Positions 1,687 through 64,000 of a stretch of DNA of 64,000 nucleotides are shown one piece after another. Both the position numbers and the translations under genes were made by a program. The first letter of the stretch is position 1, and every line of letters begins with the position of its first letter. This stretch comes from Novibacillus thermophilus (lineage in GTDB: Bacteria > Bacillota > Bacilli > Thermoactinomycetales > Novibacillaceae). The notes beneath the pieces were generated by a model, which made no database searches, was not told the origin of the DNA, and saw only the letters and a program-made list of their open reading frames with translations. The DNA is taken from positions 3,162,001 through 3,226,000 of the forward strand of contig NZ_CP019699.1 of NCBI RefSeq assembly GCF_002005165.1, given 5' to 3'.

Positions 1687-3397
1687 CCTGAATTATTCAT
1701 AACCGCGTCTCAAATGTTTTAAAAACCAGTTTCAAGCCTGATTTTTGTAAGTTTTTGGTTTCCCTAGATGTTTTCTCAAATATATTACCTAATCTACTGG
1801 AAAAACAGCAGGAAGTCATACGCTAGCTTTCAAAATCGGCTGTAAAAGGGCACACTGATCCTGTGGTTAATGTGAATGCTATGAGATTGACTTTTCTAAT
1901 ATCATCTCATTCAACCAAGCCGTGGGAGGTGATGGATGGTTCGTAAAGTCTGCCAATAAGCCTTTTGATACAGACAACTGCTGCACAGTTTAAATGTCAG
2001 ATATCTGCCTGAACGAACCAGCTTTCCCGCGATCTTAAGCAACTTCAAACGGATGTTGTCGATACGATTTTTGTTCATCGTTCTGGGTAGACACAGTCGA
2101 CGAAACCAGTTGTTGAAGTTATAGGCGAGCACCATGAGTTGCAGCTTTGTGGCGTTGCTGTAAAACGATGGACTGCTCATCTGATCGAAAGCAAAGCCGT
2201 TCTTGGCTTCTTTGATAAAGTTTTCCATCGTGCCACGGTTCGCATAAAGCTTGACGATGTTTTTGGGTGAGAGCCCCATGTTGGTCACGATGAAGGTGTA
2301 GGTGAAGAAAAGCTCACCTTCCGGTTTCTCCATCTTGACCACCACACGACGCGGCTTATCCCAAGCACGTGCCTGGTAGTCAAATGATGCGTAAAACACC
2401 TTAGCTTCTGTCGTGTTCAGATCAAACTGTTTCCAGAGTTCATCTTCAAATGGCTGTGCTTTTTGTTTCAACACGTTGTTTGCTTTTAAACGGATCACAT
2501 AGTGGACATCATGTGTTTCCGCCAATTGATAGAGAGCCGGGATGGCAAAACCGCTGTCCCCGCGTATGCATAGCGTTGCCCATGGACTTTGCTTCCGATA
2601 TCGCTTGATTTCAGGGCCGACAAAGCGGACGACTTGCCGGGATGTGTACACATGACCAGCGCGCAGTTCTGCTTTGAGACAATCTCCAGTCAGTCCATCA
2701 AACATCATCAGGGGATGGTAACCCTGGGCTTGATAATGCGTGTTAAAGGCGGATCCATGCTGTTCACCATAGGTGGCCAAGTTGGTCGAGTCCAGATCCA
2801 TCATGATGTTTTCCTTGGGTTGGATGATATCGACTCGTTTTTGCATCAGTGAATGGACCGATTGCAACTGCTTCATCGTTTCCTTATCCAATTTCTGATT
2901 TAGCCGGGAAATGGTCGGTTGAGAAGCCAGGACTTCTTTACCCAAAATGGTGGTCAACACAGGTTCATGACGTAATTCATCGGCATGATCATCCGCATGA
3001 TACCCGGCAATGTGCTGATAGATCTTTTGGATGATGACGTCATCGTTAAAATGGATGTGATGACTGTTTGGATCATTCACATTGAGGTGATCCGTGATCG
3101 CTTGACTGAGCCCGATTTTTTCATCAAATTCTTTATACAGTAACCAACCGGCATCTGAGGTCAGGTTTCCACCTTCAAAATTGACTTTCACACTTTTGTT
3201 GAAATGCATGGTCTGCTCGTTTACACTATGCATAAGGGAGCCTCCTTGGTTTGTATTGGTTTTGGTCACTTTTACAATACCAAAGGTTGGGCTCCATTTC
3301 TATTTTTCACCCATTGGGTGAAAAGGTGGAATGCTTTTAAAGGCCTGGTATGACGCGCTTTTTGATATTTTAAGTTCAGCTATATGAATAATTCAGG
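1687..3397 (-). mobile_element. IS1380-family element, copy 1, nested inside the IS4-like element
   Basis: The 1,711-bp element has terminal repeats CCTGAATTATTCATA at both ends. It is flanked by a 5-bp duplication TTAGG (1682-1686 and 3398-3402), so this copy is an undisturbed insertion. It landed in the last codons of the IS4-like transposase gene. Two nearly identical copies lie at 20407-22117 and 32004-33713. Confidence 0.92.
1911..3233 (-). CDS. IS1380-family transposase, copy 1
   Basis: A 440-residue DDE transposase. I chose the ATG at 3231-3233 (MHSVNEQTMH) because GGAGG sits 6 bases upstream; an in-frame ATG 36 bases earlier has no comparable site. Catalytic motifs visible are the first Asp in MMDLDSTN, the second in IRGDSGF and the Glu in MENFIKEAKNGF. 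It differs from copies 2 and 3 by a few substitutions (for example NDPNSHH against NDPNRHH and NLATYG against NLAAYG). The leader carries a short palindrome, TTTTCACCCA/TGGGTGAAAA, near 3303-3325. The gene appears intact. Confidence 0.93.
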   Translation of the reverse strand: MHSVNEQTMHFNKSVKVNFEGGNLTSDAGWLLYKEFDEKIGLSQAITDHLNVNDPNSHHIHFNDDVIIQKIYQHIAGYHADDHADELRHEPVLTTILGKEVLASQPTISRLNQKLDKETMKQLQSVHSLMQKRVDIIQPKENIMMDLDSTNLATYGEQHGSAFNTHYQAQGYHPLMMFDGLTGDCLKAELRAGHVYTSRQVVRFVGPEIKRYRKQSPWATLCIRGDSGFAIPALYQLAETHDVHYVIRLKANNVLKQKAQPFEDELWKQFDLNTTEAKVFYASFDYQARAWDKPRRVVVKMEKPEGELFFTYTFIVTNMGLSPKNIVKLYANRGTMENFIKEAKNGFAFDQMSSPSFYSNATKLQLMVLAYNFNNWFRRLCLPRTMNKNRIDNIRLKLLKIAGKLVRSGRYLTFKLCSSCLYQKAYWQTLRTIHHLPRLG

Positions 3398-16202: not shown

Positions 16203-17027
16203 TTGGTTGATCGGTTTGTCAAAGAGGGGCTGAAAGGGAAATCGGACACAACCGTCAAAACATACGAACAGGCGTTAAAACAGTTCGAACGTTGGCTTCA
16301 TGGGGCTGGAACGGATTTGGAAGAGTACTCTCGCTCGGATGTTCAGCAGTACCTTGACTACTTGGTCGCTAACAAGAAAAGTGCGGCCACCATCAACAAA
16401 ATCTGGAACGCCATTAAAAAGTACAGCCGTTGGAGAGGGAAAGAAGAAACGATAGAGGATATTGCTGTTGTTCAACCTCCTTCATACTATACGGAAGCTC
16501 CAAAGAGTTTAAGCCAAGTAGAGCGGAACCGGCTCATCCGGGAAGTGGACCGTTCAGGAAACAAAAGAGATTTTGCTATCGTCCAGATGCTACTCAACAC
16601 GGGATTGCGTGTTTCGGAATTGGTTTCACTGGACAGAGCGGACGTGGAGATCAAAGAGCGGAAAGGCTCGGTCAAGGTAATAGGGAAAGGGAACAAGGAA
16701 CGGATTGTTCCTCTTAACAAGGAAGCCCGCCGAGCGTTGCAGAAATACCTTGACGAACGCACGGACTCTCATCCAGCCCTTTTTCTGAGCAATCGTGGTC
16801 AGCGGATCAGTGTCCGTAGCGTCCAGTACCTTTTGGAAAAGCATGATGTTCACTCTCATCAGCTAAGGCATACGTTCATTACCGGATTGGTGCGGAATAA
16901 TGAGGATATTGCTGTGATCCAGTCCATGAGTGGACATTCTTCGACAAAGATGATCGTCAGATATGCCCTACCAACGGAAGAAGATAAAATGGAGGCGGTC
17001 GAAGAATTGTGGCACCAAAGTAAATAG
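16203..17027 (+). CDS. Tyrosine recombinase (XerC/D-like integrase)
   Basis: 274 residues, starting at TTG 16203 with AAGGGGG 7 bases upstream. An N-terminal SAM-like core-binding domain (about 1-85) precedes a catalytic domain with all expected residues: Arg in TGLRVSELV, Lys in GKGNKERIV, His-x-x-Arg in HQLRHTFI, His in MSGHSST and the nucleophile Tyr in VRYALP. It is short, like Xer or plasmid resolvase/integrases. The repeated half-sites just upstream may be its targets. It probably belongs to an integrated element. Confidence 0.9.
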   Translation: MVDRFVKEGLKGKSDTTVKTYEQALKQFERWLHGAGTDLEEYSRSDVQQYLDYLVANKKSAATINKIWNAIKKYSRWRGKEETIEDIAVVQPPSYYTEAPKSLSQVERNRLIREVDRSGNKRDFAIVQMLLNTGLRVSELVSLDRADVEIKERKGSVKVIGKGNKERIVPLNKEARRALQKYLDERTDSHPALFLSNRGQRISVRSVQYLLEKHDVHSHQLRHTFITGLVRNNEDIAVIQSMSGHSSTKMIVRYALPTEEDKMEAVEELWHQSK

Positions 17028-20406: not shown

Positions 20407-22117
20407 CCTGAATTATTCATATAGCTGAACTTAAAATATCAAAAAACGCGTCATACCAGGCCATTAAAAGCATTCCACCTTTTCACCCAATGGGTGAAAA
20501 ATAGAAATGGAGCCCAACCTTTGGTATTGTAAAAGTGACCAAAACCAATACAAACCAAGGAGGCTCCCTTATGCATAGTGTAAACGAGCAGACCATGCAT
20601 TTCAACAAAAGTGTGAAAGTCAATTTTGAAGGTGGAAACCTGACCTCAGATGCCGGTTGGTTACTGTATAAAGAATTTGATGAAAAAATCGGGCTCAGTC
20701 AAGCGATCACGGATCACCTCAATGTGAATGATCCAAACCGTCATCACATCCATTTTAACGATGACGTCATCATCCAAAAGATCTATCAGCACATTGCCGG
20801 GTATCATGCGGATGATCATGCCGATGAATTACGTCATGAACCTGTGTTGACCACCATTTTGGGTAAAGAAGTCCTGGCTTCTCAACCGACCATTTCCCGG
20901 CTAAATCAGAAATTGGATAAGGAAACGATGAAGCAGTTGCAATCGGTCCATTCACTGATGCAAAAACGAGTCGATATCATCCAACCCAAGGAAAACATCA
21001 TGATGGATCTGGACTCGACCAACTTGGCCGCCTATGGTGAACAGCATGGATCCGCCTTTAACACGCATTATCAAGCCCAGGGTTACCATCCCCTGATGAT
21101 GTTTGATGGACTGACTGGAGATTGTCTCAAAGCAGAACTGCGCGCTGGTCATGTGTACACATCCCGGCAAGTCGTCCGCTTTGTCGGCCCTGAAATCAAG
21201 CGATATCGGAAGCAAAGTCCATGGGCAACGCTATGCATACGCGGGGACAGCGGTTTTGCCATCCCGGCTCTCTATCAATTGGCGGAAACACATGATGTCC
21301 ACTATGTGATCCGTTTAAAAGCAAACAACGTGTTGAAACAAAAAGCACAGCCATTTGAAGATGAACTCTGGAAACAGTTTGATCTGAACACGACAGAAGC
21401 CAAGGTGTTTTACACATCATTTGACTACCAGGCACGTGCTTGGGATAAGCCGCGTCGTGTGGTGGTCAAGATGGAGAAACCGGAAGGTGAGCTTTTCTTC
21501 ACCTACACCTTCATCGTGACCAACATGGGGCTCTCACCCAAAAACATCGTCAAGCTTTATGCGAACCGTGGCACGATGGAAAACTTTATCAAAGAAGCCA
21601 AGAACGGCTTTGCTTTCGATCAGATGAGCAGTCCATCGTTTTACAGCAACGCCACAAAGCTGCAACTCATGGTGCTCGCCTATAACTTCAACAACTGGTT
21701 TCGTCGACTGTGTCTACCTAGAACGATGAACAAAAATCGTATCGACAACATCCGTTTGAAGTTGCTTAAGATCGCGGGAAAGCTGGTTCGTTCAGGCAGA
21801 TATCTGACATTTAAACTGTGCAGCAGTTGTCTGTATCAAAAGGCTTATTGGCAGACTTTACGAACCATCCATCACCTCCCACGGCTTGGTTGAATGAGAT
21901 GATATTAGGAAAGTCAATCTCATAGCATTCACATTGACCACAGGATCAGTGTGCCCTTTTACAGCCGATTTTGAAAGCTAGCGTATGACTTCCTGCTGTT
22001 TTTCCAGTAGATTAGGTAATATATTTGAGAAAACATCTAGGGAAACCAAAAACTTACAAAAATCAGGCTTGAAACTGGTTTTTAAAACATTTGAGACGCG
22101 GTTATGAATAATTCAGG
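20407..22117 (+). mobile_element. IS1380-family element, copy 2
   Basis: 1,711 bp, terminal repeats CCTGAATTATTCATA at both ends. The flanks (TATAA left, TTTAT right) do not match, unlike copy 1 with its clean TTAGG duplication. One side has therefore probably been exchanged or deleted after insertion. The right end cuts off the 5' part of a BCCT transporter gene. Confidence 0.92.
20571..21893 (+). CDS. IS1380-family transposase, copy 2
   Basis: 440 residues, start ATG 20571 behind AAGGAGG. Motifs are as in copy 1 (MMDLDSTN, IRGDSGF, MENFIKEAK). The frame is intact and the sequence is nearly identical to the other two copies, so the element spread recently. Confidence 0.93.
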   Translation: MHSVNEQTMHFNKSVKVNFEGGNLTSDAGWLLYKEFDEKIGLSQAITDHLNVNDPNRHHIHFNDDVIIQKIYQHIAGYHADDHADELRHEPVLTTILGKEVLASQPTISRLNQKLDKETMKQLQSVHSLMQKRVDIIQPKENIMMDLDSTNLAAYGEQHGSAFNTHYQAQGYHPLMMFDGLTGDCLKAELRAGHVYTSRQVVRFVGPEIKRYRKQSPWATLCIRGDSGFAIPALYQLAETHDVHYVIRLKANNVLKQKAQPFEDELWKQFDLNTTEAKVFYTSFDYQARAWDKPRRVVVKMEKPEGELFFTYTFIVTNMGLSPKNIVKLYANRGTMENFIKEAKNGFAFDQMSSPSFYSNATKLQLMVLAYNFNNWFRRLCLPRTMNKNRIDNIRLKLLKIAGKLVRSGRYLTFKLCSSCLYQKAYWQTLRTIHHLPRLG

Positions 22118-23429
22118 TTTATGTTGCTCTCGCTGTTTTTGGTTTTTTCGAAATACGGCAGAATCAAATTGGGCGACGACGAGGATCGGCCGGAATACAG
22201 CCGTCCGACGTGGATTGCCATGCTGTTTAGTGCCGGTATGGGGATCGGCCTCTTGTTTTATGGTGTATCTGAACCGGTTTCACATTTTGTCAATCCTCCT
22301 TATGGACCCGGAGGAACGCCTGAGGCAGCAAAACTTGCGCTCCGGTACACGCATCTCAACTGGGGACTGCATGCTTGGGCAATTTATGCCATTATCGGAC
22401 TGTCTTTGGCTTACTACAAGTTTAGAAAAAAGGTGCCTGGTTTGATCAGTGCCACGTTGTATCCACTTCTCGGGAAAAAAACTCAAGGACCGATTGGAAT
22501 TAGTTGCTGTCTTCGCGACCGTGTTTGGTGTAGCGGCGTCACTCGGTCTCGGTGCGGCGCAAATTAACAGTGGTCTTTCTTACTTAACCGGCATTCCCAC
22601 TGCTTTTTGGATACAATTGATCATCATTGCCGTGACCACGGTTCTGTTTATTTTGTCAGCCGCTACCGGTCTCAAACGCGGTATCAAATATTTAAGTAAT
22701 GCCAATATGATGTTGGCAGTCATCCTGTTCTGTTTGTTTTTCGTGTTGGGACCGGTGGGATTTATCCTCGACTTATTCACGACTGCGGTCGGTGAATACA
22801 TTCAGTATTTGCCGAGCATGTCACTGCGGATGGCGCCATTTAATGCGGAAAATGCGGAATGGCTGCGCAATTGGACAATTTTTTTCATGGCCTGGTGGAT
22901 TGCCTGGTCTCCGTTTGTCGGCACGTTTATTGCCCGCGTGTCGAAAGGGCGGACTGTCCGAGAATTTATGGTTGCCGTATTGCTTGTGCCAACCACAGTG
23001 TGTGTCATTTGGTTCTCTGTGTTCGGTGGGACAGGTATTTACTTTGATTTGTACCAAGGAACTGAAATTGCGGCACAATCATTGGAAACGGCCTTATTTT
23101 ATACGTTTCAACAACTGCCTTTGAGCGGCACGATGTCTGTCATTTCTCTGTTTTTGATCACGACGTTTTTCATCACGTCGGCCGATTCAGCGACATTTGT
23201 GCTCGGGATGCAAACGACAAATGGCAGTCTCAACCCGCCTAATTTTGTGAAGATCAGTTGGGGACTGTTTTTAGCGGCAACGGCGATCATTCTGATGGGG
23301 ACAGGCGGTTTGAGTGGATTGCAGACAGCGATCATTGTCAGCGCGTTCCCACTGACCATCGTGTTGCTCTTTATGAGTTATGCAGTGTTAAAAGCGTTCA
23401 GGCGGGAAGTACGGAAAGAAAGGAACTGA
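22118..23429 (+). pseudogene. BCCT-family betaine/choline/carnitine transporter, truncated and frameshifted
   Basis: The 5' end is removed by the IS1380 end at 22117. The remaining frame 22121 to about 22480 (FSAGMGIGLLFYGVSEP, a classic BCCT segment) is joined to the frame 22449-23429 only if one A is removed from the A7 run near 22470-22476. The second part has the signature tryptophan-rich helix FMAWWIAWSPFVGTFIARVSKGR and ends at a normal-looking C-terminus. Such transporters import glycine betaine, choline, carnitine or choline-O-sulfate-like compounds with Na+. Both lesions make it non-functional as assembled. Confidence 0.9.
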
Positions 23430-32003: not shown

Positions 32004-33713
32004 CCTGAATTATTCATAACCGCGTCTCAAATGTTTTAAAAACCAGTTTCAAGCCTGATTTTTGTAAGTTTTTGGTTTCCCTAGATGTTTTCTCAAATAT
32101 ATTACCTAATCTACTGGAAAAACAGCAGGAAGTCATACGCTAGCTTTCATAATCGGCTGTAAAAGGGCACACTGATCCTGTGGTCAATGTGAATGCTATG
32201 AGATTGACTTTTCTAATATCATCTCATTCAACCAAACCGTGGGAGGTGATGGATGGTTCGTAAAGTCTGCCAATAAGCCTTTTGATACAGACAACTGCTG
32301 CACAGTTTAAATGTCAGATATCTGCCTGAACGAACCAGCTTTCCCGCGATCTTAAGCAACTTCAAACGGATGTTATCGATACGATTTTTGTTCATCGTTC
32401 TGGGTAGACACAGTCGACGAAACCAGTTGTTGAAGTTATAGGCGAGCACCATGAGTTGCAGCTTTGTGGCGTTGCTGTAAAACGATGGACTGCTCATCTG
32501 ATCGAAAGCAAAGCCGTTCTTGGCTTCTTTGATAAAGTTTTCCATCGTGCCACGGTTCGCATAAAGCTTGACGATGTTTTTGGGTGAGAGCCCCATGTTG
32601 GTCACGATGAAGGTGTAGGTGAAGAAAAGCTCACCTTCCGGTTTCTCCATCTTGACCACCACACGACGCGGCTTATCCCAAGCACGTGCCTGGTAGTCAA
32701 ATGATGTGTAAAACACCTTAGCTTCTGTCGTGTTCAGATCAAACTGTTTCCAGAGTTCATCTTCAAATGGCTGTGCTTTTTGTTTCAACACGTTGTTTGC
32801 TTTTAAACGGATCACATAGTGGACATCATGCGTTTCCGCCAATTGATAGAGAGCCGGGATGGCAAAACCGCTGTCCCCGCGTATGCATAGCGTTGCCCAT
32901 GGACTTTGCTTCCGATATCGCTTGATTTCAGGGCCGACAAAGCGGACGACTTGCCGGGATGTGTACACATGACCAGCGCGCAGTTCTGCTTTGAGACAAT
33001 CTCCAGTCAGTCCATCAAACATCATCAGGGGATGGTAACCCTGGGCTTGATAATGCGTGTTAAAGGCGGATCCATGCTGTTCACCATAGGCGGCCAAGTT
33101 GGTCGAGTCCAGATCCATCATGATGTTTTCCTTGGGTTGGATGATATCGACTCGTTTTTGCATCAGTGAATTGACCGATTGCAACTGCTTCATCGTTTCC
33201 TTATCCAATTTCTGATTTAGCCGGGAAATGGTCGGTTGAGAAGCCAGGACTTCTTTACCCAAAATGGTGGTCAACACAGGTTCATGACGTAATTCATCGG
33301 CATGATCATCCGCATGATACCCGGCAATGTGCTGATAGATCTTTTGGATGATGACGTCATCGTTAAAATGGATGTGATGACGGTTTGGATCATTCACATT
33401 GAGGTGATCCGTGATCGCTTGACTGAGCCCGATTTTTTCATCAAATTCTTTATACAGTAACCAACCGGCATCTGAGGTCAGGTTTCCACCTTCAAAATTG
33501 ACTTTCACACTTTTGTTGAAATGCATGGTCTGCTCGTTTACACTATGCATAAGGGAGCCTCCTTGGTTTGTATTGGTTTTGGTCACTTTTACAATACCAA
33601 AGGTGGGCTCCATTTCTATTTTTCACCCATTGGGTGAAAAGGTGGAATGCTTTTAATGGCCTGGTATGACGCGCTTTTTGATATTTTAAGTTCAGCTATA
33701 TGAATAATTCAGG
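32004..33713 (-). mobile_element. IS1380-family element, copy 3
   Basis: 1,710 bp, one base shorter than the other copies (one T missing in the leader near 33604). It has the same terminal repeats. The flanks TTTAT (left) and TTAAT (right) do not match, so no target duplication is left. Its right end removes the 5' part of a YiiX-like gene. Confidence 0.92.
32228..33550 (-). CDS. IS1380-family transposase, copy 3
   Basis: 440 residues from ATG 33548-33550 behind AAGGGAGG. It is nearly identical to the other copies, with a His-to-Asn change (QSVNSLMQ) and the C-terminus PRFG instead of PRLG. The single-base leader deletion opens the frame further upstream but does not touch the gene. Confidence 0.93.
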   Translation of the reverse strand: MHSVNEQTMHFNKSVKVNFEGGNLTSDAGWLLYKEFDEKIGLSQAITDHLNVNDPNRHHIHFNDDVIIQKIYQHIAGYHADDHADELRHEPVLTTILGKEVLASQPTISRLNQKLDKETMKQLQSVNSLMQKRVDIIQPKENIMMDLDSTNLAAYGEQHGSAFNTHYQAQGYHPLMMFDGLTGDCLKAELRAGHVYTSRQVVRFVGPEIKRYRKQSPWATLCIRGDSGFAIPALYQLAETHDVHYVIRLKANNVLKQKAQPFEDELWKQFDLNTTEAKVFYTSFDYQARAWDKPRRVVVKMEKPEGELFFTYTFIVTNMGLSPKNIVKLYANRGTMENFIKEAKNGFAFDQMSSPSFYSNATKLQLMVLAYNFNNWFRRLCLPRTMNKNRIDNIRLKLLKIAGKLVRSGRYLTFKLCSSCLYQKAYWQTLRTIHHLPRFG

Positions 33714-57864: not shown

Positions 57865-59571
57865 TTAAAAAAGTTCCTGCCGAATTTTTCGTTGTTTTGT
57901 GCTGTCATGCTTTTTCACGTCTTGTTTTTGACTCTCTTTTGAAACCTCTTTTGTCTCCGGATCATCTTGTGAAGGCTCACGTACTTCCCTGTCAGTATGG
58001 GCACCGCCTTGTTCAGGTTGTTTCTCTTCCCCTTGGTCATGGCGGAAATGATTGACCGTTTCATCAAAGAAAATGGGATGTGGGTCTTCGTGGTGAATAT
58101 AACGGGTTTTATTTTCCCGCTTCGGCGGGATGATCTCGATTTCATGTCTGATCAGTTTAGGGACCGTTTCCTTCTTCAGTTCCGACGATTGCTTTCTTGC
58201 AAAGAAGCGCATGAGTCCTTTGGGCTGGCGGGTGGTCGTCTCCCATTCCCGCTGTTTTTTCCAGTCACGGGGGACGAAACGGCCCCGGCCGATCTTGGGC
58301 GGTTGGGGTGTTCCGTTCTGAACCAGCTTGTACACAAAGTGGAACCGGGGAAGCCCGTCCATCAACTGGGTGTAGAAGAAGCGATATTCCTCCTGCTCGG
58401 TGTCCCGGTAGTGAGACGGAAAAAGGTTCGCCCCGATGATCTTCGTGTCATAGGTGGCCTGTCGGACGATAATCTGCTTCTTCCCAAACTCTTCCGCGAA
58501 CTCCTTGGCGTCTTCTGCCGATATACCGCCAAAACAGATTTTGTTGCGGCAACCGTTTATAATCGCGCGTTTCACCGCCTTGCCACTCATTTTGCCCGTC
58601 TCCACTTCCAGTTGGCTCAACGATTGACAAGCAAAAATGCCGGCCACCCGGTATTCGGCGGCAATGTTCAAAAACCGCTCAATATCCGGGTTAATATACC
58701 GGGAATACTCGTCCACGATCAGAAAATGGGGAACACGGGTCTTTTCGGTTCCGCCCCGTCTGAACGTCCCTGCCTGTAGGTGCATGATGATGTACTGGCC
58801 AAACGCATCCCCACTTGTCCCCAGTTCCCCCAAGGCGGTGTTCACCGCCAAAATACCGCCTTTTTCAAAATGCCGGTCCATGTCAAAGCTGGACTGTCCG
58901 GTCATGATAGTTCGCAAACGACTGTTCGCTGTCAGGTTCTCTAACTGTGCCCTGAGACCGATTACAAACTGGCGGTATTTGTCTTTCATGGCCCCCAACA
59001 GTTCCGTCTTGAAAAATTTGGTCAGATCATCCTCGCCCTGCCGATGGATCAGTTCATTCACCTTGTATTCCAGAAGTTTCAGGTCACGTAAGGTATTGAC
59101 TACATCACCTAAATCAATTCGGTCCCCATGAAGCCGTTTCAACAGCTTGGTCACATTCCGAGCAGAGACTTCCTGAACGGTAGCAAAAAAGGCTTCCTGC
59201 TTGCCAAAAAGGCTCTTTAATACGGCCACGGTGGCCTCAGCAACGGTATCCTCATCGCCAATCATCGGGTTAAACCGGTGGCTCTCGTATGACGGGTCAT
59301 AACCAGTATCCACGGCATATCCCCGCTTTTGGGACGGGTCAATATGCACAAAATCCAATCCCATTTCCTCACACATTTCCCGCACCATAAAGGCGACGCC
59401 CCCTTTCGGTTCGATAACCGACAGCCCAAGCGGTTTCCCCCTCGCTTTCTGTACCAAGAGGTTGTAAATAATCGGTTTTAATATAGTGGCCGTTTTCCCG
59501 GTACGAGTTGGACCGACGACGAGCATGTGCGTATAGGGATCGTCACCGCCCCAGATGATCTTGTTGTCCAC
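57865..59571 (-). CDS. VirD4/TraG-type coupling ATPase without membrane anchor
   Basis: 568 residues. Walker A is VVGPTRTGKTATI (about 18-30) and Walker B is HFLIVDEYSRYI (about 280). The TraG/TraD motor fold with its all-alpha insertion follows, and the C-terminal 100 residues are charged and low complexity. These ATPases deliver relaxosome DNA or substrates to a type IV secretion channel. There is no N-terminal transmembrane segment, which most VirD4 proteins have. The gene immediately upstream (59584-60078) encodes a four-helix membrane protein that could supply it. Confidence 0.87.
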   Translation of the reverse strand: MDNKIIWGGDDPYTHMLVVGPTRTGKTATILKPIIYNLLVQKARGKPLGLSVIEPKGGVAFMVREMCEEMGLDFVHIDPSQKRGYAVDTGYDPSYESHRFNPMIGDEDTVAEATVAVLKSLFGKQEAFFATVQEVSARNVTKLLKRLHGDRIDLGDVVNTLRDLKLLEYKVNELIHRQGEDDLTKFFKTELLGAMKDKYRQFVIGLRAQLENLTANSRLRTIMTGQSSFDMDRHFEKGGILAVNTALGELGTSGDAFGQYIIMHLQAGTFRRGGTEKTRVPHFLIVDEYSRYINPDIERFLNIAAEYRVAGIFACQSLSQLEVETGKMSGKAVKRAIINGCRNKICFGGISAEDAKEFAEEFGKKQIIVRQATYDTKIIGANLFPSHYRDTEQEEYRFFYTQLMDGLPRFHFVYKLVQNGTPQPPKIGRGRFVPRDWKKQREWETTTRQPKGLMRFFARKQSSELKKETVPKLIRHEIEIIPPKRENKTRYIHHEDPHPIFFDETVNHFRHDQGEEKQPEQGGAHTDREVREPSQDDPETKEVSKESQKQDVKKHDSTKQRKIRQELF

Positions 59572-60078: not shown

Positions 60079-60263
60079 TGTGCCAGATACTCCTTCTCTG
60101 TCCGGTTGTATACCGCTAAAACAAAATGCATGTCATCGGTCATGATCTCTTTCATCAGCGAAAAGATTTCTTCTTGCTGGGGGACAGTGTATGTTTTCCG
60201 TTCTTCTTCAATTTCCGGTCGGCTGATTAAGCGGCATACGTCCTGCAACGGCTCGATCAGCAT
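60075..60263 (-). CDS. Small hypothetical protein of the transfer operon
   Basis: 62 residues, MLIEPLQDVCRLISRPEIEEE..., predicted soluble and acidic. It overlaps both neighbours by a few bases (ATGA-type at each end), the signature of a translationally coupled operon, which supports it as a real gene. The family is unknown. Confidence 0.6.
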   Translation of the reverse strand: MLIEPLQDVCRLISRPEIEEERKTYTVPQQEEIFSLMKEIMTDDMHFVLAVYNRTEKEYLAH

Positions 60264-61255
60264 AGCCTCAACTCCTGATCCGTGATTTCGATGATTTCAA
60301 CTTTCTGAACACCTGTCAAATACTCTCTGACTCGGTCTGCAAAGGCTTCATAAACAAACAGCACAGCTTTCCGGTCAAGACGGTCCCGCCGCATCCGGTC
60401 CATCAGCGTCAGGTCGTTCATGAGCAAATTGACCGCATACTTCTTTTCCCCGTTGTGGAAAATAAAATGTCTTTTGTATTCCTCCGGCATACGCTCTCGA
60501 TTGGGTTCAACCTCCCCGTATTTTGTGATTGTTTTCACAAATTCTTGATCTGTTTTAAATCGCTTGAGTACGTTCAGTGCATAGGTGTACGGCAGGGCAC
60601 ACACGGTGTCGAAAACACGGTCGCTGGCGAGATACATAGTCCGAAACGCGTCAAACGATTCCAACCCCCTGAATAATACAAGATTGTGCCGTTTTCCCAT
60701 CTGCCGGTAACTTCTGTTCATCTCTTTCATTATGCGGCGCAAGGTCTGATCTTTTGCTCCGGCCCGGACGATGTAGACCAGGTACTCTCGTCCGTCTTCT
60801 GTCACCACGGCTCCTTTGCACAAATCGCCCCGCTCCATCTGGTACTTCTTCTTTAACGCCCGCGAATCCAAAAAGGTGTAGCCTTCTCTTTTTAACGCCA
60901 CATACAGGTCATTAAAATCCAGATACCCTTCCATGTTCTGCCTCTCTATTCTTAAATCCTTTGCTTCAATGTCCTCGTCTATCAATCCCCTTTCCCGTAA
61001 TAACCGGATTCCTTTGTCGGTGATGGTGTATATGGCGGTCCGTTCTCTCCCTTTCTTTTTGGCTCGCATGATGATTTTTGATTGAATGTACCCGCTGTTT
61101 CGCAGAATGTACATTTTACGGTACGTATATGCCTTACTTCCTCGAAAATACAGCCGTTCTATCTGCTCCCTGGTCATGATCCGGAACCGGTACAAGTCAT
61201 ACAATATTCCCTCATCCGTTTCTACCACTCGCTTAATGGTCTTCCGCTCTCCCAT
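60257..61255 (-). CDS. Replication-relaxation family protein
   Basis: 332 residues from ATG 61253-61255 (MGERKTIKRVV) with AGGAG 8 bases upstream; the longer frame to 61444 is non-native. A winged helix at the N-terminus (YDLYRFRIMTREQIERLYF, KMYILRNSGYIQSK) is followed by an alpha/beta nuclease-like domain (EYLVYIVRAGAKDQTLRRIMK). This matches the replication-relaxation family found on Gram-positive plasmids and ICEs, thought to help start replication or transfer by DNA binding. It lies directly before a cluster of TTTGACA repeats. Confidence 0.8.
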   Translation of the reverse strand: MGERKTIKRVVETDEGILYDLYRFRIMTREQIERLYFRGSKAYTYRKMYILRNSGYIQSKIIMRAKKKGRERTAIYTITDKGIRLLRERGLIDEDIEAKDLRIERQNMEGYLDFNDLYVALKREGYTFLDSRALKKKYQMERGDLCKGAVVTEDGREYLVYIVRAGAKDQTLRRIMKEMNRSYRQMGKRHNLVLFRGLESFDAFRTMYLASDRVFDTVCALPYTYALNVLKRFKTDQEFVKTITKYGEVEPNRERMPEEYKRHFIFHNGEKKYAVNLLMNDLTLMDRMRRDRLDRKAVLFVYEAFADRVREYLTGVQKVEIIEITDQELRLC

Positions 61256-61431
61256 TCCACCACTCCTGCAACGTTGGTAAGGTTTACCGTAAATTTTGGC
61301 TTGTGGGGCTGTTTGTTCGTGTCTACTTTTACGGTAGACACTCCCAAACTTACTGAAAAACGAACTTACGTTCCTTTCCGTAAGATATGGAAAATAATAA
61401 AAGGATTCACTGGATTTTCGACAGTTTTTTC

Positions 61432-61648
61432 GTGTCAAATACACCTTTTGAAAAAATCAAGTTTAACGGAAAATGGTGACCACAACTTTTTATTGCCATC
61501 AAGGCATTTTTACAACTATGAAATCCATTGTTTTTGACATTTCTAAAACGTGTCATATTAACATTCTTAAAAAATGACTTTATTTGACACAAAAAAAATG
61601 CTTTTTAACCCCGTCTGTATGTGTCAAATAGAAGATTTATTTTGACAT
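61432..61648. repeat. Six TTTGACA-type 9-mers in alternating orientation
   Basis: GTGTCAAAT at 61432 and 61621, GTGTCATAT at 61550, ATTTGACAC at 61582, and TTTTGACAT at 61532 and 61640. They form three inverted pairs in about 217 bases upstream of the replication-relaxation gene. They could be binding sites for that protein, an origin/transfer region, or in part -35 boxes. Confidence 0.5.
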
Positions 61649-61768: not shown

Positions 61769-62344
61769 TCACTGGATTGTTTTTTTTAACAGGTCAATAT
61801 GTTTAGCACCAAAATCGGCCAAATGTTTATCATCAACCACAAACAGGACCACTTTTGCCTCGTTACCCAACAATCCTGTTTCTGTCCACGATACATGTTG
61901 CCAACTATCGTCCGGGATAAAACCAGCATGTCTAAAATTATCTATCAGGAACTTTGTATAACGGTTGTCCAAGTCCCGAACCATTCTGTCAGGGAAATAA
62001 TGTATGACATAAATGTGGGCCTGTTTAAACTCATGTTTAATGGGAATTCCCGACTTGGCAAGCCAAAACGCTCTTTGATACATGTCCCGAACCTTGCCTT
62101 TAATTTTCATCTTTTCATCATAATGGGGAAGCATCCCCATGTATTCAACCGAAAGCACCGGATAACCAAACCCATCCAGCCACTTCACTGTACAGGGGCG
62201 TCCGACCTCATCATCAGGCAATTCAGCATGATCATTGATATACCCTTCGTAATACGCTTCCAGCGCATCCAGCCACCGATGGTACAGCTCAATTCTCATC
62301 CTTTCAGCCAATTCGATAGACTTGGGATATGGTTTATAAAACAT
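61769..62344 (-). CDS. RusA-like Holliday-junction resolvase
   Basis: 191 residues. The block IYVIHYFPDRMVRDLDNRYTKFLIDNFRHAGFIPDDSW (quoted only as motif: the RDLDN and PDDSW parts are key) matches the RusA family's D-x-D-N metal-binding site and second Asp pair. Such enzymes cut four-way junctions and are frequent on phages and plasmids. The N-terminal 100 residues are not assigned. It is in line with the other backbone genes but separated from them by the repeat region. Confidence 0.65.
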   Translation of the reverse strand: MFYKPYPKSIELAERMRIELYHRWLDALEAYYEGYINDHAELPDDEVGRPCTVKWLDGFGYPVLSVEYMGMLPHYDEKMKIKGKVRDMYQRAFWLAKSGIPIKHEFKQAHIYVIHYFPDRMVRDLDNRYTKFLIDNFRHAGFIPDDSWQHVSWTETGLLGNEAKVVLFVVDDKHLADFGAKHIDLLKKTIQ

Positions 62345-62824: not shown

Positions 62825-63217
62825 CTAAAGTGATATATCGCCGAGTGACATCCCTAAAAAATCGACATTGTCCGCAAAGCCTTCCTGTTTCTCAGCCCTT
62901 CGTTTTGATTGTTCTGGCTTGATTGTCGTACCTTTTAACATCGCGACTTGCTTATTTAATTCGGTCACCTGTTGAGATATCGTTTTTAGATTCCGTTCAA
63001 CCGCTTCCAACTTTCCGTCATACCGACTGAGCTTATTGATGAGATCCTGATGTTGATCCAGCAACACCTCAATCATGTGGCTTTGTTTCTCAAAAGCCGT
63101 TTTATACGTAAGGGTAAATTCCACGGCCTGGTTTAGAAATCTTGTCTTTTCACCCCTTTCCGTTAAGGTTTCAAAATAGGATTGAACCCTTTTATTCGGA
63201 CGAAAACCGATCTGCAT
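62825..63217 (-). CDS. parR: ParR-like DNA-binding adaptor
   Basis: 130 residues from ATG 63215-63217 (MQIGFRPNKRVQ) behind GGGAGGTGG; the longer frame from 63283 is less likely. A ribbon-helix-helix-like N-terminus (FRPNKRVQSYFETL, then RFLNQAVEF) precedes a long coiled coil (about 55-105). It is just downstream of a ParM-like gene and beside an iteron array, the arrangement of type II segregation systems. It would bind the iterons and link them to ParM filaments. Confidence 0.72.
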   Translation of the reverse strand: MQIGFRPNKRVQSYFETLTERGEKTRFLNQAVEFTLTYKTAFEKQSHMIEVLLDQHQDLINKLSRYDGKLEAVERNLKTISQQVTELNKQVAMLKGTTIKPEQSKRRAEKQEGFADNVDFLGMSLGDISL

Positions 63218-63230
63218 ACCACCACCTCCC

Positions 63231-63525
63231 TGTTTAACAGTATCAACCCTTGTGTCTATTGGCCTTATACCCTTGTTTTTCATGATATGTTTAACAAAAG
63301 TGTTTAACAGCTTAATCGCTTGATATGACAGCGCTCATTAAGCTTTTTCACGCACTCTGTACAACAACAAACCAATTCCCATCAAACTGTTGTTTAACAA
63401 AAACTAAAAAAACAGCTTTTAAACCCATTTGTACCAAGGGTTTTAGCTGTTAACGTGTTTGTTTAACAATTTCACGCAGAATGAGCAATAAAGCCTTTGC
63501 TGATGCACCTTTCTGCTGTTTAACA
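63231..63525. repeat. parC: Six TGTTTAACA iterons, candidate parC centromere
   Basis: Exact TGTTTAACA at 63231, 63288, 63301, 63391, 63460 and 63517, all in the same orientation, in 295 bases between the ParM-like and ParR-like genes. A seventh partial copy (TGTTAACG) is at 63448. One copy overlaps the leader of the ParR gene, suggesting autoregulation. Confidence 0.72.
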
Positions 63526-63529
63526 AGAT

Positions 63530-64000
63530 TTACCCACTATACGAAAGTCTGTCTTGTGTTTCCTGTTCCATTCTAGGTTCATCTTGTCGTTGCTGTATCT
63601 CCATAAGTTGCAGCATACCGCGTGCCTCAGACAACTGTGGATCTTCTACAATATGAATTTGTTTGGATAGCGGATGCTGTCTCAAAAGGTGCCCAACATC
63701 CGCCGTTGTTCCGCCCGCAAAAAAGATTTTGCGAATAAAACTTATTTTGTTGCCCCACCTGTTTTGTAGGCTGTCTAATACTTTACGGGTGATATGCCGT
63801 TTGCTGTCTTCTATTGTGTTGGAAAAGTCGTACTCGACTCCGTCGTAAAAAACAATCCCGTCATCATTTATAATGTCCTCTGCTTCCATGACAGATATTG
63901 GTGCTCCTACTTTGCTGTGAAAAGCACGCTGAACCATTCGCCGAATTTCCATTGCGCCTACATCATCAAGTGTAAATGACAACTCGGATTGAAGGCGAAA
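63530..64000 (-). CDS. parM: ParM-like actin-type segregation ATPase, N-terminus outside the window
   Basis: The C-terminal 157 residues are visible; the frame is open to the right edge. The block KIFFAGGTTADVGHLL followed by IVEDPQLSEARGMLQ is the adenosine-binding and helix region at the end of ParM/StbA/Alp-type actins. ParM polymerises on ParR-bound centromeres and pushes plasmid copies apart. With the ParR-like gene and iterons it forms a complete-looking type II partition module. Confidence 0.75.
   Translation of the reverse strand, partial: FRLQSELSFTLDDVGAMEIRRMVQRAFHSKVGAPISVMEAEDIINDDGIVFYDGVEYDFSNTIEDSKRHITRKVLDSLQNRWGNKISFIRKIFFAGGTTADVGHLLRQHPLSKQIHIVEDPQLSEARGMLQLMEIQQRQDEPRMEQETQDRLSYSG

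What the first reader, a model, noticed from the sequence alone, without database searches (positions are those of the whole stretch)
63231..63525. Iteron centromere between parM-like and parR-like genes
Six exact copies of TGTTTAACA in the same orientation fill the space between the two genes. This gives a compact ParM-ParC-ParR module with the array between the genes, whereas classical R1 par has it upstream of parM. The repeat unit is a near palindrome. The array identifies this part as a replicon or element that segregates actively.
Basis: partly seen in the sequence, partly recalled or inferred. Interest (0 to 1): 0.6.

Follow-up and report, generated by a model that had tools for sequence, protein, structure and literature searches.

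The report
Paired-box centromere between parM and parR
A chromosomal conjugative element carries a predicted actin-driven DNA-segregation module whose DNA anchor site lies between its two genes and is built from paired 9-letter boxes about 57 letters apart, a layout that I find kept in distant relatives even though the letters of the boxes change.

Summary
In detail: six exact TGTTTAACA copies fill 63231-63525, against about one expected in the whole 64 kb. Fetching the rest of the gene confirms an actin-like ATPase of the ParM family (nearest solved structure: pCBH ParM, E 2.5e-35). A second, 80% identical module sits 1.7 Mb away; its array holds the same box in both orientations, so "same orientation" is not a rule and the unit is a near-palindrome TGTTWAACA.

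The larger finding is geometry. In relatives from Bacilli and Clostridia, and on one Sulfobacillus conjugative plasmid, the parM-parR gap holds boxes with different letters but similar spacing: pairs 56-58 bp apart, mostly separated by 13, 24 or 33-34 bp. Counting two degenerate boxes, the window has four such pairs, at the same offsets as a relative whose ParM is 50% identical. Many pairs enclose a second, letter-conserved inverted repeat, TAAACCC...GGGTTTA.

I read this as an intergenic parC centromere bound by ParR: a new variant of type II (ParMRC) partition. ParR binding and DNA segregation are inferred, not shown. ParM-driven partition on an integrating element is known (SXT/R391). Within the papers I could search, I found no description of the intergenic, paired-box layout.

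The parts
63530..64000 (-). parM-like gene, C-terminal part; the full gene continues outside the window (L004:3530-4627, 365 aa, P0001)
   Evidence: Pfam ALP_N / MreB-like_C; pCBH ParM 6izr E 2.5e-35
63218..63529 (.). parM-parR gap = proposed parC centromere, 312 bp, four box pairs
63517..63525 (+). box 1 (pair 1, exact TGTTTAACA)
63460..63468 (+). box 2 (pair 1, exact), 57 bp from box 1
63447..63455 (+). box 3 (pair 2, degenerate CTGTTAACG); the matching position in copy 2 has an exact box
63391..63399 (+). box 4 (pair 2, exact), 56 bp from box 3
63358..63366 (+). box 5 (pair 3, degenerate TGTACAACA)
63301..63309 (+). box 6 (pair 3, exact), 57 bp from box 5
63288..63296 (+). box 7 (pair 4, exact), 13 bp from box 6
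63231..63239 (+). box 8 (pair 4, exact), 57 bp from box 7; lies just upstream of the parR ribosome-binding site
63422..63442 (.). inner inverted repeat AACCC-N11-GGGTT inside pair 2 (10/10 match)
63245..63266 (.). inner inverted repeat inside pair 4 (8/10 match)
62825..63217 (-). parR-like gene, 130 aa: predicted N-terminal extended stretch, helix 9-20, helix from 24 running into a long coiled coil (P0002)
   Evidence: no family or fold hit
61769..62344 (-). 191-aa gene of a type that follows parR in several relatives (RusA-like by eye; no Pfam hit)
60257..61444 (-). Replic_Relax (replication-relaxation) protein
   Evidence: PF13814 3.1e-11
57865..59571 (-). VirD4/TraG-type conjugative coupling protein
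   Evidence: PF02534 4.1e-12, PF12696 1.6e-11

Best explanation
This is a type II (actin-type) partition module with gene order parM - parC - parR. The gap is the centromere parC. ParR, a small protein with a probable ribbon-helix-helix N-terminus and a coiled-coil tail, is inferred to bind the near-palindromic boxes. Boxes come in pairs 56-58 bp apart, joined by 13, 24 or 34 bp steps, so bound ParR would be set in register along the DNA and could form the curved segrosome known from R1 and pSK41. ParM filaments would then capture that complex and push two copies of the excised or newly transferred element apart. The box letters would give each element its own specificity, while the spacing is fixed by the ParR-DNA architecture. 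Shown here by sequence: ParM identity, the array, its spacing, and its recurrence in distant relatives. Inferred: ParR binding, segrosome formation, segregation, and any autoregulation of parR by the box next to its start.
For: ParM family. Array far above chance. Second copy keeps the boxes and is one unit (70 bp) shorter. Relatives have gap arrays with other letters and the same spacing, including Sulfobacillus conjugative plasmid pY0017 (58, 41, 58). Pooled box pairs at 56-58 bp in five lineages: 11 observed, 1.40 expected, never reached in 20000 simulations. Motif-free test: 15 of 25 gaps have a repeated 8-mer at 56-58 bp, shuffles mean 1.17, maximum 4. Control upstream of parM: 4 of 25 against 20 of 25 in the gap for 7-mers at 55-59 bp. 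Adjacent spacings periodic at about 11 bp (R 0.88; null 99.9% quantile 0.57). Arrays of 14 or more boxes in L061 and 17 in L083 are more than an operator needs. parM overlaps its upstream gene in the window and in copy 2, leaving no room for a classical upstream parC.
Against: No binding or stability data. The ParR fold is only a prediction (mean pLDDT 75.7, pTM 0.37, no structural match). In pCBH, the nearest solved relative, the authors placed parC upstream of parM and showed ParR binding there (PMC6599009). Some relatives (Ammoniphilus L049, L027-L029, L031, L063, L072, L080) have parM and parR abutting, so the layout is not universal. The element is chromosomal, so active partition is not needed while it is integrated.
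Confidence: 0.82

Rival explanations
1. The array is mainly an operator: ParR binds the boxes to repress its own gene, and segregation, if any, uses another site.
For: The last box lies just upstream of the parR start; parR autoregulation through parC is known in pSK41 (PMC4911067).
Against: Four or more pairs, and up to 17 boxes in L083, exceed an operator; spacing is conserved over the whole gap; no other repeat cluster of this box exists in the chromosome apart from copy 2. In known systems parC is both operator and centromere, so this may be an addition rather than an alternative.
Confidence: 0.1
2. The boxes are replication iterons bound by an initiator protein.
For: Direct repeats in one orientation resemble iterons; the element carries replication-related genes (SSB, RadC, primase-like, DnaN-like by eye).
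Against: In the relatives examined the array lies between parM and parR; no initiator gene adjoins it here; orientation is mixed in copy 2 and boxes are near-palindromes.
Confidence: 0.03
3. The repeated inner inverted repeats are transcription terminators after parM and the boxes are incidental.
For: Hairpins with T-runs follow parM in L024 (-17.8 kcal/mol) and in the window's unit 2.
Against: The terminator scan finds none in the gap; units 3-4 point the other way; in L083 an A-tract rather than a T-tract follows; arms do not covary beyond shuffles, as expected of a protein site rather than a stem; terminators would not fix box spacing.
Confidence: 0.03
4. A domesticated chromosomal ParMR with a role other than DNA partition, like the genome-encoded cParMs.
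For: The module sits on a chromosome; cParMs without plasmids are described (PMC12270681).
Against: It lies inside a conjugative gene cluster in both copies, and the same layout is on a plasmid.
Confidence: 0.1

Closest known systems
pCBH ParMRC (Clostridium botulinum plasmid; ParM structures 6izr, 6izv, 6ixw)
   Same: Nearest ParM of solved structure (E 2.5e-35); parM followed by parR with a long gap (474 bp from the coordinates in PMC6599009)
   Different: Its parC was assigned upstream of parM; boxes in its gap are not reported in the passages of the main text that I read. I did not read the plasmid.
SXT/R391 srpMRC (PMC4489591)
   Same: An integrating conjugative element with a ParM-type partition module; repeats include direct and inverted copies
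   Different: srpC lies upstream of srpM (four 13-bp repeats); other host group
R1 and pSK41 ParMRC
   Same: ParM, ParR and a repeat centromere beside the genes
   Different: parC upstream of parM; direct repeats (11 bp in R1, 10-bp or 20-bp in pSK41 depending on the paper) rather than spaced box pairs
Genome-encoded cParMR (Desulfitobacterium Dh-cParM1, C. botulinum Cb-cParM; PMC12270681)
   Same: Chromosomal ParM with ParR nearby; Cb-cparC has palindromic repeats; Dh-cParM1 is a weak sequence match (4.8e-8)
   Different: Cb-cparC is outside the parM-parR gap, with three palindromes; no paired spacing described in the passages read

Membership tests
Type II (ParMRC) partition | Actin-like ATPase ParM | tested here: met
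   Pfam ALP_N and MreB-like_C, pCBH ParM 2.5e-35
Type II (ParMRC) partition | Small DNA-binding adaptor ParR next to parM | tested here: inconclusive
   130-aa gene, conserved xFRx...RSxxIRxAL pattern across 14 relatives, predicted helix-helix plus coiled coil after an N-terminal extended stretch; no family, sequence or fold hit to known ParR
Type II (ParMRC) partition | Repeat centromere beside the genes | tested here: met
Type II (ParMRC) partition | ParR binds parC and ParM filaments stabilise the replicon | not testable with these tools
   needs gel shift and stability assays
Classical R1/pSK41 layout | parC upstream of parM, direct repeats | tested here: not met
   array lies between the genes; parM overlaps its upstream gene; boxes are spaced pairs
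Replication iterons | Array tied to an initiator gene | tested here: not met
   array is in the parM-parR gap in the gap-bearing loci analysed
Integrative and conjugative element | Conjugation genes, integrase, defined ends | tested here: inconclusive
   T4CP, VirB4-like, Replic_Relax, M23/SLT present; tyrosine recombinases lie nearby; ends and att sites not mapped

The most novel reading that the evidence does not exclude
A distinct centromere class: composite units of about 65 bp in which two element-specific palindromic boxes 56-58 bp apart enclose a letter-conserved inner site TAAACCC...GGGTTTA placed 4-5 bp from one box. The units are arranged as mirror images (two facing right, two facing left; spacing 57-13-57-33-57-13-57). 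Specificity evolves through the box letters while a fixed segrosome geometry is inherited across Bacilli and Clostridia.
Probability: 0.6. Interest if true: 0.72.

Novelty: new variant of a known kind. Interest (0 to 1): 0.6.

Why it matters
Bacterial actin-type centromeres look unrelated between systems, so the rules of segrosome assembly have been hard to generalise. Here many natural centromeres share a strict spacing rule while their letters differ. That separates specificity from architecture and makes both directly testable: swap letters to change partner, change spacing by half a helical turn to break assembly. It also gives a simple way to find parC in unannotated ParM loci, and it suggests looking again at the parM-parR gap of pCBH, whose parC was assigned upstream.

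Tried and rejected
Chance: rejected. 'Same orientation' as a rule: rejected (copy 2). Inner inverted repeat as a base-paired hairpin or cruciform: no covariation beyond shuffles (63.5% against 60.8% paired, covariation score reached by 154 of 500 shuffles) and RNAalifold predicts no structure, so it is read as a protein site. Terminators: the scan finds none in the gap. 11-bp base-composition periodicity inside the spacers: no clear signal. Single-protein scans of genome contigs and viral contigs found no relatives; the alignment query worked in genome contigs but not in viral contigs. More distant plasmid ParMs of Bacillus and Thalassospira lack such an array in the gap. Literature search for parC between parM and parR found nothing, within open-access papers only. 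ParR sequence and fold searches against PDB gave nothing useful.

Full report
What was checked. The six TGTTTAACA copies are present at the stated places, between a parR-like gene (62825-63217, minus strand) and a parM-like gene that runs out of the window. The window is positions 3162001-3226000 of a single 3.63 Mb contig. With the flanking DNA the complete ParM is 365 aa, with ALP_N and MreB-like_C domains. The nearest solved structure is pCBH ParM at E 2.5e-35; Dh-cParM1 follows at 4.8e-8.

Second copy. The same chromosome holds another module at 1514435-1516158, 80% identical in ParM. Its gap has five exact boxes in mixed orientation plus a sixth with one change. The gap is 242 bp against 312 bp in the window; the difference, 70 bp, is one 57+13 unit. 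The two gaps align at 64% identity.

Relatives. Searches of the class and phylum and a named collection gave relatives down to about 25-30% ParM identity. Where parM and parR are separated, most gaps hold their own repeated box: TGTGTTACA (L024), TGTAWTACA (L018), TGTAATACR (L026), TGTAAACA (L051 Thermoanaerobacterium, L066), TGTATTACA with TGTTTACA (L052, L054, L064), TGTTAACA (L061), TGTCCGACA (L075), TGTATACA (L083), GGGTGACA (L069), TGACGGCA (plasmid pY0017, L091). On a ParM tree the paired arrays are spread over the whole clade, including its deeper branches (quick tree).

Geometry. Spacings between successive boxes are: window 57, (13), 56, (33), 57, 13, 57; copy 2 56, 13, 56, 33, 56; L024 57, 13, 57, 33, 57, 13, 57; L018 about 56, 24, 57, 34, 57, 34, 58; L066 56, 13, 58, 34, 57, 13, 57; L075 57, 23, 57, 33, 57; L060 57, 24, 57, 25, 57, 34, 58; L061 56, 24, 57, 14, 56, 24, 56, 14 and onward; L083 56, 17, 56, 51 repeated; pY0017 58, 41, 58. 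Some of these values involve boxes with one or more changes; in the window, L024 (first box) and L018 (outer boxes) I placed the degenerate ones by eye at the expected position. The statistics use exact boxes only. Five lineages give 11 pairs at 56-58 bp against 1.40 expected; 20000 simulations never exceeded 7. A motif-free test on 25 gaps gives 15 with an identical 8-mer, on either strand, at 56-58 bp; shuffles give 1.17 on average and at most 4. With 7-mers at 55-59 bp the counts are 20 of 25 in the gap, 4 upstream of parM and 8 inside parM. The other frequent distances (about 33, 69, 81, 90) are those expected from the same lattice. L026 keeps pairs of 45 bp, about one helical turn shorter.

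Inner site. Many pairs enclose AACCC-N11-GGGTT, starting 4-5 bp from one box and centred about 15 bp from it. The match is 10/10 in the window's unit 2, in L018 unit 1, in L066 units 2 and 4, and in seven of eight L083 units; it is weak or absent in several others, including the window's units 1 and 3. The aligned consensus is TAAACCCTTG...AAGGGTTTA. It lies beside the left box in the first half of the array and the right box in the second half in L024, L018 and L066; the window's units 2 and 4 fit that scheme. In L083 it alternates. Arms do not covary beyond shuffles, so I read it as a sequence-specific protein site. Which protein binds it is unknown.

ParR. The protein has no family hit. Across 14 relatives the N-terminus reads xFRx...RSxxIRxAL followed by a coiled coil and a short conserved tail. 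The predicted model has an N-terminal extended stretch, helix 9-20 and a helix from 24 into a coiled coil. This is what a ribbon-helix-helix chain looks like alone, but it is not proof, and the fold search found nothing.

Context. Around the module are a T4CP, a Replic_Relax protein, a VirB4-type ATPase, an M23/SLT wall hydrolase, and Tad-like pilus genes (T2SSE, T2SSF). Copy 2 also has, by eye, SSB, RadC, a primase-like protein and a DnaN-like protein. Tyrosine recombinases lie nearby. This fits an integrated conjugative element; I did not map its ends.

Mechanism. The inferred steps are: ParR binds box pairs; the fixed 57-bp and 13/24/34-bp steps, periodic at about 11 bp, hold the bound ParR in register; the complex is captured by ParM filaments, which separate copies of the excised element. 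Arrays of up to 17 boxes argue for a centromere over a mere operator. Direct evidence for binding or segregation is absent.

Known or new. ParM-type partition of an integrating element is known (SXT/R391, PMC4489591). Chromosomal ParMs are known (PMC12270681). parC is described as usually upstream of parM (PMC9426499). I found no paper describing an intergenic parC with paired boxes, but only open-access papers could be searched. I therefore rate it a new variant of a known kind.

Noticed in passing
window 63217-64000 and L007:2435-4158 (G000:C1:1514435-1516158): Two related conjugative elements that share the same centromere box sit 1.7 Mb apart in one chromosome, on opposite strands.
   Followed up: partly
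L004/L005 (3235635-3243831) and L006 (1497001-1505185): An 8.2 kb block is 95.3% identical between the two elements while the rest is about 65-70%, pointing to recent recombination between them, in inverted orientation.
   Followed up: no
L008:4756-5922: Copy 2 of the element region carries a DnaN-like sliding clamp gene (by eye), beside an SNF2-like helicase gene.
   Followed up: no
window 1687-3340, 20463-22120, 32004-33657: Three copies of a roughly 1.65 kb insertion sequence, about 99.5% identical to one in the copy 2 region.
   Followed up: no
window about 16509-16973: Tyrosine recombinase (PF00589, 5.2e-33); whether it belongs to the element was not tested.
   Followed up: no
L049:6001-7441 (Ammoniphilus): A ParM 51% identical with parR directly abutting and no array seen nearby: a possible loss of the centromere.
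   Followed up: partly
L052:7214-7483, L054:7220-7489: A conserved 89-aa gene lies between parM and the array; its end contains the first box of the array (TGTTTACA) within the coding sequence.
   Followed up: no
L083, gap after parM: The longest array: 17 TGTATACA boxes with a strictly repeated 51, 56, 17, 56 spacing.
   Followed up: partly
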